From contig CANQSB010000001.1 in NCBI GenBank assembly GCA_947626435.1, positions 248,001 to 312,000 on the forward strand: a stretch of DNA of 64,000 nucleotides, in the 5' to 3' direction. The notes under the pieces were generated by a model. The model ran no database searches. It was not told the DNA's origin and worked only from the letters and a program-made list of their open reading frames with translations. The stretch is from an uncultured Lachnospiraceae bacterium. Its GTDB lineage: Bacteria; Bacillota; Clostridia; Lachnospirales; Lachnospiraceae. Shown here one piece after another: positions 39,004-64,000 of this stretch. The position numbers and the translations under genes are program-made. The stretch's first letter is position 1; the number at the start of each line of letters is the position of its first letter.

Positions 39004-39061
39004 GTGTTTCTATTTCCTAATTACTGAATTATGATGTTCTGATTTCAAGCATAATTCATAT

Positions 39062-39201
39062 AGGCATTTGTGAAACTCTATTCGACAACATAGAATTTAG
39101 GCAAAATATATAAAATAAGCGGCGTCTCGCGGAGCACCCAGCCGCGTTTTTATATATTTTAACTAAATTCGGACAGTTTGGAACACATTTCGCAATTACC
39201 T
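39062..39201. repeat. R1 palindromic repeat, copy A
   Basis: About 140 bp. Outer ends AGGCATTTGTGAAA and TTTCGCAATTACCT are imperfect inverted repeats; inside are GAATTTAG..CTAAATTC, AAAATATATAAAA..TTTTATATATTTT and a GC-rich core AGCGGC..GCCGCG around CGGAGCAC. It lies between the YjfB terminator and the end of cvfB and could also act as a terminator (the core is followed by TTTTT). Confidence 0.85.
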
Positions 39202-39207
39202 AATAAT

Positions 39208-44391: not shown

Positions 44392-44559
44392 GCCCGGACA
44401 GGACAATTCACCCCATTCAGACAACGCTTGCGCTCAGTGAAAAGCGTAGCGGACACTAAGCTCGGCGGCGCGTTAAAAGGAGCTGCGCTTTTAACGCTTG
44501 CTTCGCTAAGTGCCGACGCTTTTCAATGGTCTTCATGGGGTGAATTGTCCTGTCCGGGC
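44392..44559. repeat. R3 multi-stem palindromic element, copy 1 (reverse orientation)
   Basis: 168 bp. The two ends form a perfect 25-bp inverted repeat beginning GCCCGGACAGG. Inside are a tandem G-A mismatch followed by a short helix (AGAC/GTCT), TGAAAAGCG/CGCTTTTCA, CACTTAGC/GCTTAGTG with one mismatch, and the hairpin GCGTTAAAAG/CTTTTAACGC. It is in the opposite orientation to copies at 48631 and 58313. It lies between trmR and trhP and contains no open frame of interest. Confidence 0.93.
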
Positions 44560-48630: not shown

Positions 48631-48797
48631 GCCCGCACAGGATTGTACACCCTATGAAGCCCTTCGGAAAGCGCCGGCACTTAGCGAAACAAGCTGTAAA
48701 AGCGAAGCTCCTTTTACAGCGCCGTTGAGCTTAGTGTCCGCTACGCTTTCCGCCAAGCGGGAGCGGGGCTGAATAGGGTGTACAATCCTGTGCGGGC
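48631..48797. repeat. R3 multi-stem palindromic element, copy 2
   Basis: 167 bp. Perfect 25-bp outer inverted repeat beginning GCCCGCACAGG, then the tandem G-A mismatch and AGCCC/GGGCT, CGGAAAGCG/CGCTTTCCG, CACTTAGC/GCTTAGTG and the hairpin GCTGTAAAAG/CTTTTACAGC; a further small hairpin CCGC-CAA-GCGG. It occupies the space between the mtaB stop and the ireB promoter region. Confidence 0.93.
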
Positions 48798-52273: not shown

Positions 52274-52412
52274 CTATTCGATAACGTAGAATTTAGTCAA
52301 AATATATAAAATCAGCAACGATTCGCCACGTAACTTGTTACGTTGAGCACCAAGTCGCGATTTTATATATTTTGACTAAATTCGGACTGTTTAGAAAACC
52401 TTTAGCATCAGC
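52259..52412. repeat. R1 palindromic repeat, copy C
   Basis: AATTTAGTCAAAATATATAA and its continuation form a perfect 23-bp inverted repeat with TATATATTTTGACTAAATT and preceding bases. The loop holds its own palindrome ACGTAAC-TT-GTTACGT and the GAGCACC core shared with other copies. The right end (GGACTGTTTAGAAAACC) is degenerate. Confidence 0.85.
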
Positions 52413-52424
52413 GTTTTAACATTT

Positions 52425-52541
52425 ACAAGCATTATCCAACAACGTAGAGTTTGAGTGAAATATACAAAATAAGCGGTGCCTTACGGAGCACTGCACCGCG
52501 TTTTTGTATATTTCGCGCAAACTCGGACGGCAGAGAAACCT
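52425..52541. repeat. R1 palindromic repeat, copy D
   Basis: GAGTTTGAG..CGCAAACTC and AAATATACAAAA..TTTTGTATATTT are complementary within the copy but differ from copies A-C at both arms. The core GCGGTG..CACCGC surrounds CGGAGCAC. It ends 3 bases before the stop of the cysteine desulfurase gene. Confidence 0.82.
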
Positions 52542-52543
52542 TC

Positions 52544-53713
52544 TCACACTCCCTCACACCAATACCTAGTATATCTCCTCAACATCGGCACCAGCTCCTT
52601 CAAAACACGCAAAGTATAATCCATATCCTCCTCCGTATTCAATACACTCATACTAAACCGAATCGTCGAATCCAAATACTGCTTCTCAACCCCAATCGCC
52701 TTCAAAGTCACCGAAGCCGACGGCTTATTCGACGAGCACGCACTGCCTGCCGAAACATAAATCCCCTTATCCTCCAGCGCATGCAACATAACCTCACTCC
52801 GCACCCCCTGTATTGACACACTGACCACATTAGGCGCGCCATCCCTACCAAGCGGACCATTTATCCTTATCCCGTCAAGCCCTGCCAGCCCATCCGTAAA
52901 CCTATCCTTTAACGCATACAGATAATTTCTCTTACCCTCCAAATCACTATATGCCTCCTCAGCCGCAAGCGCCATCCCCGCTATCCCCGGGACATTCTCC
53001 GTACCAGAGCGCATCCCTTTCTGCTGCCCCCCGCCAAAAATAATCGGTCTTACCTTCGCCTTTTCATTGACATAAAGAAACCCCACTCCCTTAGGTCCAT
53101 GAATTTTGTGAGCGCTCACAGAAAGCATATCAATATGCATCCGCTTGGGATATATTGCAAACTTGCCAAAACTCTGCACCGCATCAACATGAAACAGCGT
53201 ATTGGGATTAAGGCGCTTTATCAGCTCGCCCGCCTGCTCAATCGGCTCTATCGTGCCTATCTCATTGTTTACATGCATAATAGACACTAAAATCGTACCG
53301 CGCGTCATAGCCTTTTCCAAATCATAAAGACTCACCGCGCCGCTCCTGTCAACAGGCAGGTATGTAACCTGAAAGCCCTGTTCCTCAAGATAAGCGCAGG
53401 TCTGCAGCACTGCGGGGTGTTCTATCCTCGTAGTTATGATATGCCTGCCCGCCCTGTGGTTTGCGTATGCCGCCCCGATAAGCGCTATGTTGTCCGACTC
53501 CGTGCCGCCCGAAGTAAATATTATTTCCTTCTCCTGAACCTTCAAAAGCTTTGCTATCGTCTCTTTCGCATAGCGGATATATTTTTCGCTCTCAACGCCT
53601 TTTCTGTGCATGCTTGACGGGTTTCCGTAGTCCTCGCACATAATCTTTGTCATAAGCGCCGCCACATTCGGCAGGCATCTTGTGGTCGCCGAATTGTCCA
53701 AATAAACTTCCAT
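52544..53713 (-). CDS. Cysteine desulfurase (NifS/IscS family), sulfur donor for ThiI
   Basis: 389 residues from the ATG at 53713; a GTG 9 bases earlier is too near the AAGGG site. PLP-enzyme features: YLDNSATTR at the start, the TSGGTESDNIALIGAA loop, the Schiff-base Lys in SVSAHKIHGPKGVGF and the catalytic Cys in SAGSACSSNKPS. The layout corresponds to class I (IscS-like) desulfurases. It releases sulfur from cysteine as persulfide for thiouridine or Fe-S assembly. The thiI gene follows after two R1 repeats, as in the Bacillus nifZ-thiI pair. Confidence 0.95.
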   Translation of the reverse strand: MEVYLDNSATTRCLPNVAALMTKIMCEDYGNPSSMHRKGVESEKYIRYAKETIAKLLKVQEKEIIFTSGGTESDNIALIGAAYANHRAGRHIITTRIEHPAVLQTCAYLEEQGFQVTYLPVDRSGAVSLYDLEKAMTRGTILVSIMHVNNEIGTIEPIEQAGELIKRLNPNTLFHVDAVQSFGKFAIYPKRMHIDMLSVSAHKIHGPKGVGFLYVNEKAKVRPIIFGGGQQKGMRSGTENVPGIAGMALAAEEAYSDLEGKRNYLYALKDRFTDGLAGLDGIRINGPLGRDGAPNVVSVSIQGVRSEVMLHALEDKGIYVSAGSACSSNKPSASVTLKAIGVEKQYLDSTIRFSMSVLNTEEDMDYTLRVLKELVPMLRRYTRYWCEGV

Positions 53714-55929: not shown

Positions 55930-55963
55930 TGTTGTTTGTCTCCTTTCATAATATAATCAATTT

Positions 55964-56131
55964 AGGCATTTGCGAAATGTGTTCTAAGCCATCCGAATCT
56001 AGTCAAAATATATAAAAATCGCGTCAATGAACTGTATCTCAGATACAGTTCATAGGCGCTCCGCGAAACGCCGCTTATTTTATATATCTTGCCTAAATTC
56101 TATGATGTTGAATAGGGTTTTGCAAGTGCCT
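55964..56131. repeat. R1 palindromic repeat, copy B (reverse orientation)
   Basis: 168 bp. Ends AGGCATTTGCGAAA and TTTTGCAAGTGCCT. The sequence between, read on the opposite strand, matches copy A closely. The loop contains an extra perfect palindrome (13-bp arms, ATGAACTGTATCT). A 13-bp direct repeat, ATATAATCAATTT, flanks it on both sides. Confidence 0.87.
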
Positions 56132-56147
56132 ATATAATCAATTTTTT

Positions 56148-58300: not shown

Positions 58301-58312
58301 TACGATACACTA

Positions 58313-58479
58313 GCCCGAGCAGGGGCATATATCCCATAAGGACCTTGGGAAGCGTCGGCACTTAGCGAAGCAAGCTGTAAAAGCGTAGCTCCTTTTACAG
58401 CGCCGCTGAGCTTAGTGACCGCTACGCTTCCCACTGAGCGCAAGCGATGTCCGCATGGGATATATGCCCCTGCTCGGGC
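58313..58479. repeat. R3 multi-stem palindromic element, copy 3
   Basis: 167 bp. Perfect 25-bp outer inverted repeat beginning GCCCGAGCAGG, GGAC/GTCC, TGGGAAGCG/CGCTTCCCA, CACTTAGC/GCTTAGTG and GCTGTAAAAG/CTTTTACAGC, in the same order as the other copies. It lies between dnaJ and prmA, inside a normally continuous operon. Confidence 0.93.
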
Positions 58480-58563
58480 GACCTCTTACCAACAAAAAAA
58501 ACACCTGCAACAGCCTCCCTTTCTCCAAAAGCTATTGCAGATGTCCAATCTAACCTCTACATA

Positions 58564-63898: not shown

Positions 63899-64000
63899 GC
63901 CCGAGAGGAGAAATATATCCCATTCAGACCCGAGGATTTGGCGTAAGCACAAATCCGAAAACGGAACTTAGATTTTCTTAGGCGTTGTTCTTTAACGCCT
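63899..64000. repeat. R3-like element, copy 4, cut by the window end
   Basis: Begins GCCCGAGAGGAG and continues to ATATCCCATTCAGA, the same layout and conserved ends as copy 1, then a hairpin GGATTTG..CAAATCC, GAACTTAG, and a last hairpin AGGCGTT..AACGCCT ending at base 64000. The second half of the outer stem lies beyond the window. It lies upstream of the hrcA promoter. Confidence 0.6.

What the first reader, a model, noticed from the sequence alone, without database searches (positions are those of the whole stretch)
44392..44559. R3: a multi-helix 167-bp element in three full copies whose helices co-vary
Seen in the sequence: copies at 44392-44559 (reverse orientation), 48631-48797 and 58313-58479 share length, ends and internal order. 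The 25-bp outer arms are perfect in each copy yet differ between copies at ten of 25 positions; each change is matched in the opposite arm. The same holds for a short inner helix (AGAC/GTCT, AGCCC/GGGCT, GGAC/GTCC), a 9-bp helix (TGAAAAGCG, CGGAAAGCG, TGGGAAGCG with their complements) and a hairpin stem (GCGTTAAAAG versus GCTGTAAAAG with complements). In total about 15 or more compensated base pairs are seen across only three copies. Loops and junction segments such as CACTTAGC, GCTTAGTG and AGCTCCTTTT are invariant. Known families with this layout do not come to mind. Inference: a structured RNA, or a DNA hairpin element that is copied through a folded form.
Basis: partly seen in the sequence, partly recalled or inferred. 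Interest (0 to 1): 0.93.

Follow-up and report, generated by a model that had tools for sequence, protein, structure and literature searches.

The report
Widespread gut-bacterial mobile hairpin element
The three matching hairpins are copies of a small mobile DNA element, about 50 per genome here and with relatives in many other genera of a large family of gut bacteria, whose folded shape is kept while its sequence drifts and whose surroundings carry an unexplained one-strand imprint.

Summary
The own genome holds 50 catalogued copies; three congeners give 30, 44 and 47 matches. In 31 own copies 99.3% of cells pair and 38 of 64 pairs show two-sided changes. The covariance model matches 81 of 299 genomes of the family, own included. 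The 38 elements I read, from 35 other genomes, show a recognisable three-way-junction core with a tiny side hairpin (GNRA loop in 132 of 136 clade and distant elements, six sequences), inside closing arms that share little sequence between genera. No Rfam family matches.
The element is mobile. In one genus it sits inside a miniature transposon with IS66-type ends; other genera show other ends.
Arms co-vary within orthologous copies, partly by copying one arm from the other.
In this clade the flanks are G-poor on the folding strand, 22 of 23 copies, fading by 1-2 kb. Seven occupied-versus-empty comparisons support the element as cause, three do not, one is unclear.
A new family of a known kind, with one odd property.

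The parts
44392..44559 (-). copy c1 of the hairpin element (sense strand is minus); outer arms 44535-44559 and 44392-44416
   Evidence: 182.6 bits
44426..44433 (-). side hairpin GC[GCAA]GC of c1
   Evidence: read on the minus strand; columns 145-152
48631..48797 (+). copy c2; outer arms 48631-48655 and 48773-48797
   Evidence: 186.8 bits; no element at the matching site in G028, G017 and G026
48757..48764 (+). side hairpin GC[GGGA]GC of c2
58313..58479 (+). copy c3; outer arms 58313-58337 and 58455-58479
   Evidence: 187.8 bits; same site occupied in G017 (element identical over 167 bases) and G028
58374..58401 (+). apical hairpin GCTGTAAAAG-CGTAGCTC-CTTTTACAGC of c3 (form typical of this clade)
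58438..58445 (+). side hairpin GC[GCAA]GC of c3
58302..58312 (+). weakly conserved left flank (consensus about CCAAWAMMCTA)
   Evidence: profile of 92 copies
58480..58492 (+). weakly conserved right flank (consensus about GRCCTSTTRCCAA)
   Evidence: profile of 92 copies
63997..64000 (-). first bases of a fourth, damaged copy (own genome C1:311997-312170) that leaves the window
   Evidence: L088

Best explanation
R3 is this clade's form of a structured module, about 130-190 nt, found across Lachnospiraceae and carried by small non-autonomous mobile elements. The functional form is one folded strand (sense). It is a long imperfect hairpin with a three-way junction: a closing helix of free sequence, an inner helix with a recurring pattern of bulges, a U.U mismatch and usually a tandem G.A, with a variable tip, and a 2-bp side hairpin capped by a GNRA loop. 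Shown: structure, distribution, copy number, mobility by presence/absence, transposon ends in one genus. Complementarity is kept while sequence drifts because (i) replication template switches copy one arm into the other (signature seen in several copies) and (ii) copies with the folded core are the ones that spread or are retained (inferred). Inferred and least certain: in this clade the fold is processed as single-stranded DNA. The sense strand around each copy is repeatedly removed and rewritten from the antisense strand, which would give both the arm-to-arm copying and the one-strand imprint in the flanks.
For: High copy number and dispersal: 50 catalogued own copies; G028, G017, G026. Homologues: 81 of 299 genomes at E<=1e-4, own included. 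38 elements read from 35 genomes (34 in other genera, one in a congener): 31 of 37 pass a strict three-signature test, the six misses are variants, and L267 was read by eye. GNRA in 132 of 136 elements, six loop sequences, counted by a pattern that looks for GNRA first; many clade copies are orthologous and not independent. Mobility: empty sites; IS66-type ends, target repeats at 3 of 7 copies read, and an autonomous candidate in G110. Template switching: L078 vs L192; L080 and L118 vs L097; GA to TC in L128, L095 and L080. In-situ compensation: 19 two-sided against 12 one-sided outer-arm changes in 30 ortholog comparisons of 24 own copies (site identity, one pair by one flank only). Flank imprint: skew shift -0.27 +- 0.024, 22 of 23 copies, similar for either sign of background skew; control palindrome family -0.05 +- 0.035, 7 of 11. 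Derived changes within 500 bp at four occupied loci: 65 with the imprint, 6 against.
Against: The flank imprint is weak or absent in other genera: -0.05 +- 0.05 near 13 copies, about -0.08 +- 0.04 near 20 copies, and of opposite sign in G110 (+0.10, 1 of 7 negative). At two reciprocal sites (G028 occupied, G000 empty) the occupied lineage shows 8:16 and 14:24, the wrong direction, and at one of them the empty lineage shows 36:16; c2 shows 7:4; L028 shows no clear shift. At six sites occupied in all three species recent changes are balanced (60:68, 56:74, 109:110), which equilibrium predicts but which does not support a cause. No nuclease or transposase for this clade was found: no Y1 transposase match in G000 or G026, no RVT_1 match in G028 or G026, no IS66 in G000, G028, G017 or G026; other transposase families were not searched. 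In the distant set G.U exceeds A.C, as an RNA function predicts. 19 against 12 alone is not different from 1:1 (p 0.28), though one-sided changes would be expected to dominate without correction or selection.
Confidence: 0.6

Rival explanations
1. A structured RNA function: the elements are transcribed and the folded sense RNA acts (mRNA processing or stability, protein binding, or a catalytic core); pairing is kept by selection on the RNA.
For: Loops vary within GNRA in 132 of 136 elements; tandem G.A, U.U mismatch and bulges recur across genera; in 37 distant elements outer-arm G.U exceeds A.C 23 to 5 and the sense fold is the more stable in 35 of 37.
Against: In this clade outer-arm G.U and A.C are equal, 10 and 10. 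Intermediates are rare: 194 two-sided cells against 20 one-sided and 14 unpaired (summed). Copies lie in both orientations next to unrelated genes. Arm copies that destroy the conserved mismatches are found.
Confidence: 0.3
2. An ordinary MITE whose palindrome is kept neat only by neutral quasipalindrome correction; the core is conserved by recent descent, not by function.
For: Arm-to-arm copying signatures in situ; quasipalindrome correction is an established E. coli process (PMC7202029, abstract and start of introduction) and can maintain hairpins (PMC8794818, abstract and start of introduction).
Against: The core's irregularities and GNRA loop persist across genera while the arms lose resemblance: mean identity 0.31 over the first 20 nt in 666 pairs of 37 elements. 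Neutral correction would erase the mismatches first.
Confidence: 0.15
3. The flank imprint is not caused by the element: copies insert into, or survive in, intergenic stretches that are already G-poor on one strand.
For: Two reciprocal sites and c2 show no imprint in the occupied lineage, and one empty lineage shows it; L028 is unclear; other genera show little imprint.
Against: The shift reaches 1-1.5 kb on both sides with one polarity; four occupied loci show 65 to 6 derived changes and c1 shows 16 to 4; a second palindromic family in the same genome lacks it.
Confidence: 0.4

Closest known systems
YPAL/RU-2 (Yersinia palindromic sequence; PMC2229807, abstract and one section read)
   Same: about 168 bp, intergenic, many copies, internal inverted repeats, not A+T-rich, recent mobility from empty and filled sites
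   Different: different host; the section read mentions no three-way-junction core, GNRA side hairpin, arm turnover between genera or flank strand asymmetry; sequences were not compared
REP/REPIN elements with RAYT (Y1) transposases (PMC2817692, PMC3116915: search listing only)
   Same: palindromic, dispersed, non-autonomous, mobile
   Different: no Y1 transposase match in G000 or G026; one large asymmetric hairpin rather than paired short palindromes (definition recalled)
IS66-derived MITEs
   Same: in G110 the module lies between 25-bp IS66-type inverted ends, with 8-10-bp target repeats at 3 of 7 copies read
   Different: no IS66 in the own clade, nor in G106, which carries the module between other ends
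Integron attC sites (recalled)
   Same: a folded single strand with conserved shape and free arm sequence
   Different: no conserved recombination ends seen at the base of the stem; the conserved part is internal

Membership tests
MITE / small non-autonomous mobile element | dispersed repeats without coding capacity | tested here: met
   50 own copies of 143-225 bp; 6 of 50 lie inside a mechanical stop-to-stop frame, the rest between frames
MITE / small non-autonomous mobile element | presence/absence at orthologous sites | tested here: met
   c2 absent in G028, G017 and G026; flanks 98.9% and 92.7% identical to G028
MITE / small non-autonomous mobile element | terminal inverted repeats and target duplications | tested here: inconclusive
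   inverted ends in 7 of 8 G110 copies read, target repeats at 3 of those 7; neither identified in the own clade
MITE / small non-autonomous mobile element | autonomous relative supplying the transposase | tested here: inconclusive
   IS66-family gene between matching ends in G110, over Pfam's cut-off but under NCBIfam's; none found for the own clade
Structured RNA family | covarying helices with conserved unpaired positions | tested here: met
Structured RNA family | transcription | not testable with these tools
   no expression data
Any Rfam 15 family | match at gathering score | tested here: not met
   one match in the window, a tRNA elsewhere; six loci to E<=1 gave only matches far below gathering scores
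REP/RAYT system | Y1 transposase in the genome | tested here: not met
   no PF01797 match in G000 or G026; one with an internal stop in G017 and two partial ones in G028
Retroelement | reverse transcriptase in all host genomes | tested here: not met
   no PF00078 match in G028 or G026; one each in G000 and G017

The most novel reading that the evidence does not exclude
A mobile single-strand hairpin that makes its host rewrite one particular DNA strand around it, cell cycle after cell cycle. New mismatches within about 1 kb are then resolved toward the other strand (A>G and C>T on the sense strand nearly vanish, G>A and T>C rise, total rate unchanged), and the element's own arms are kept complementary by the same resynthesis through the fold. 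The genome would carry about 50 islands of strand-polarised evolution that reach into neighbouring genes.
Probability: 0.25. Interest if true: 0.92.

Novelty: new variant of a known kind. Interest (0 to 1): 0.72.

Why it matters
It defines a structured mobile element found in many genera of a major family of gut bacteria that the current RNA library does not contain. It separates two explanations of helix covariation that are easily confused: selection on RNA, and template switching in DNA. If the flank imprint proves to be caused by the element, small repeats would be shown to set the substitution pattern of neighbouring genes on one strand only, and dozens of natural copies would make it measurable.

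Tried and rejected
Rejected: reverse-transcription or Y1-type copying as the mechanism in this clade. Rejected: replication direction as the source of the flank skew; the shift is similar for either sign of the background skew. Rejected: a general effect of palindromes in this genome (one control family of 11 copies). Led nowhere: no recurring gene beside the elements in other genera (20 of 28 neighbouring proteins scanned); no clean target duplication in the own clade.
Corrected: I first judged L267 (G155) spurious from a wrongly placed printout; read at its true place it is a good member.
Rows dropped: six decayed or outlying copies (L088, L053, L129, L132, L135, L104) were left out of the 99-copy counts; with all 105 copies the outer-arm mismatch types were 19 G.U and 21 A.C. 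The profile used 92 copies of G000, G028 and G017. One search has an outgroup for 4 of the 5 loci. The 30 comparisons use 24 own copies; without the five pairs that were first matched by eye the counts are 17 to 9 in 25, and one search then supported those five sites (L004/L093 by one flank only).

Full report
WHAT WAS CHECKED. The window is part of a 3.70-Mb, 98-contig genome. A covariance model built from 31 own rows finds 49 full-length sense copies and one damaged copy there (150 of 1,327 first-look candidates scored). I catalogued these 50. Counting on the 31 rows gives 99.3% paired cells, 38 of 64 pairs with two-sided changes and 0 of 500 shuffles reaching the observed values. A core fragment and a short derivative are also present.

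DISTRIBUTION. In 60 genomes drawn as relatives, 5 match at E<=0.001: the own genome (47), G028 (47), G017 (44), G026 (30) and G002 (1); at most 47 candidates were scored in each and at least one listed match is an antisense reading. A pattern scan of named genomes returned 46 stretches, all from three assemblies titled uncultured Lachnospiraceae, isolates Lapin-012, Lapin-028 and Lapin-024; their contig lengths equal those of G028, G017 and G026, and 'Lapin' suggests rabbit gut (inference). One genome per genus over the family: 81 of 299 match at E<=1e-4, own included, with nine candidates scored in each. Antisense strands of true copies score about 48-93 bits, so such scores alone do not prove membership. 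I therefore read 38 elements from 35 genomes, 34 of them in other genera and one (G002) a congener. Each shows a recognisable core; 31 of 37 pass a strict test of three sequence signatures, and the six misses differ by small or compensated changes, for example CATCAG..CTGCTATG in L327 for the usual CGTCGG..CCGCTACG; L267 was read by eye. None of the window copies matches Rfam. Six loci searched to E<=1 gave only matches far below their families' gathering scores.

ANATOMY. Sense strand: closing helix (about 20-25 bp, free sequence), a short helix, then a three-way junction. One branch is a long inner helix with recurring irregularities (a CU bulge, a U bulge, a U.U mismatch, usually a tandem G.A next to the tip; L332 and L333 lack the last) and a variable tip. 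The other is a 2-bp hairpin with a four-base loop. The loop is GNRA in 132 of 136 elements (99 of the clade, 37 distant), with GCAA 85, GAAA 18, GAGA 15, GGGA 7, GCGA 5 and GGAA 2; the count came from a pattern that looks for GNRA first. The closing arms of the 37 distant elements have a mean pairwise identity of 0.31 over 20 nt, yet 29 of 37 pair with at most two mismatches. Two copies side by side in G106 share 93 of 110 inner alignment columns but only 36% of their arm; arm replacement or core conversion would each explain this.

MOBILITY. No element stands at the c2 site in G028, G017 and G026, with left and right flanks 98.9% and 92.7% identical to G028, so c2 is probably a recent insertion. 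Other sites are empty or carry deletion remnants in G028. In G110, 7 of 8 copies read form the centre of a roughly 260-bp element with 25-bp inverted ends. There are 94 such ends (up to three mismatches) in that genome and none for the reversed control pattern. Target repeats of 8-10 bp were read at 3 of these 7 copies. One pair of ends encloses a 581-aa protein that passes Pfam's DDE_Tnp_IS66 cut-off but not NCBIfam's IS66 equivalog cut-off (137 against 180 bits). G106 and G160 copies have other ends, and the own clade has no IS66 match. The module is therefore found between different transposon ends. What moves it in the own clade is unknown; only Y1, RVT_1 and IS66 families were searched.

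WHY THE ARMS STAY COMPLEMENTARY. Orthologous copies in G000, G028 and G017 were compared at the same sites. In 30 comparisons of 24 own copies the outer 24 bp show 19 two-sided and 12 one-sided differences. Several differences are one-step copies of one arm into the other that turn a conserved mismatched stretch into a paired one: the whole inner arm in L078 against L192, and in L080 and L118 against L097; and GA to TC in L128 against L006, in L095 against L022 and in L080 against L118 and L097 (L128 also gained an A.A mismatch next to it). This is the signature of quasipalindrome template switching (PMC7202029 and PMC8794818, abstracts and starts of introductions read; PMC8604942, search listing only). 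Outer-arm mismatches in 99 clade copies are 10 G.U and 10 A.C; in the 37 distant elements they are 23 and 5. Correction at DNA level and selection for the fold of one strand therefore both seem to act. RNA or single-stranded DNA as the acting form is not decided.

FLANKS. On the sense strand the first 150 bp on either side are G-poor (0.10-0.13) and A-rich, and C exceeds G in 43 of 50 copies between 150 and 700 bp. In 20 copies the GC-skew shift against each copy's own 4-8-kb background is -0.27 (left) and -0.46 (right) in the first 100 bp. It keeps one polarity on both sides and fades by 1.5-2 kb. Over 23 copies it is negative in 22 and similar for either sign of the background skew; a second palindromic family gives 7 of 11 and -0.05 +- 0.035. 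G028 shows it near 12 of 14 copies on large contigs; G028 (15 copies), G017 (13) and, over a short range, G026 (7) show it in pooled counts. Other genera show little: -0.05 +- 0.05 (13 copies), about -0.08 +- 0.04 (20 copies), and G110 has the opposite sign.

CAUSE OR PREFERENCE. Five occupied (G000) against empty (G028) sites show G>A plus T>C against the reverse at 88 to 15 within 200 bp, 161 to 53 at 200-500 bp, 261 to 124 at 500-1000 bp, 367 to 274 at 1-2 kb and near parity beyond. Polarised with G026 at four of them, the occupied lineage shows 65 to 6 within 500 bp against 263 to 222 at 2-8 kb. The total rate is about 4% in both zones, because A>G and C>T nearly vanish. That sum rule suggests biased resolution of mismatches rather than extra mutation, as if the sense strand were rewritten from the antisense strand (inference). 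c1 (16 to 4) and c3 against G026 (40 to 10, unpolarised) agree. Against it: c2 (7 to 4) and two reciprocal sites with G028 occupied (8 to 16 and 14 to 24) do not show it, and at the first of these the empty lineage does (36 to 16); L028 is unclear. In one search the empty lineage shows an excess the other way (21 to 47), which may be relaxation after loss or mis-polarisation by a distant outgroup. Sites occupied in all three species are balanced, as equilibrium predicts. I hold 'caused by the element' at somewhat better than even for this clade, and the strand-rewriting mechanism lower. SbcCD is a known hairpin nuclease in E. coli (PMC4245961, abstract read) and a candidate; SbcD is present in G000, G017 and G026 and was not found in G028.

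VERDICT. A real and large family of structured mobile elements that I found no description of. Seven searches of the held library listed no paper that I recognised as describing it; that library lacks most subscription journals. The covariation is partly a DNA process. The one-strand flank imprint is the surprising part and needs an experiment.

Noticed in passing
window 39058-39203, 52274-52548, 55962-56135: A second dispersed palindromic family (arms like GAATTTAGNCAAAATATATAAAA) with further copies in fetched own-genome stretches; used as the control family.
   Followed up: partly
L086 and L088 (own genome C36:6739-6963, C1:311997-312170); also G017 copies L132, L135: A third small hairpin element (AAAACGGAAAGATTTTCTAAGG...) appears nested inside copies of R3.
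   Followed up: no
L027, L084, L085, L088, L172: An 18-nt or similar extra hairpin (GCTAC-AAAGAAC-GTAGC and covarying forms) at one spot of the inner stem is present in one ortholog and absent in the other (L172 vs L015, L085 vs L104), suggesting exchange of cores between copies.
   Followed up: no
L376 (G028 C18:6333-6644) and L375 (G000 C32): SbcD stands beside an SbcC-like frame in G000; in G028 only a different MRE11-type protein of 366 aa was found, so SbcD may be missing from that assembly.
   Followed up: partly
L178 (G028, site of own copy L014): A short derivative keeps only the outer arms, changed in sequence but still complementary (GCCCTCGCAGG...CCTGCGAGGGC).
   Followed up: no
L364 and L366 (G110): Miniature elements of about 85-110 bp with the same IS66-type ends but without the R3 module, apparently hairpin-deletion derivatives.
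   Followed up: no
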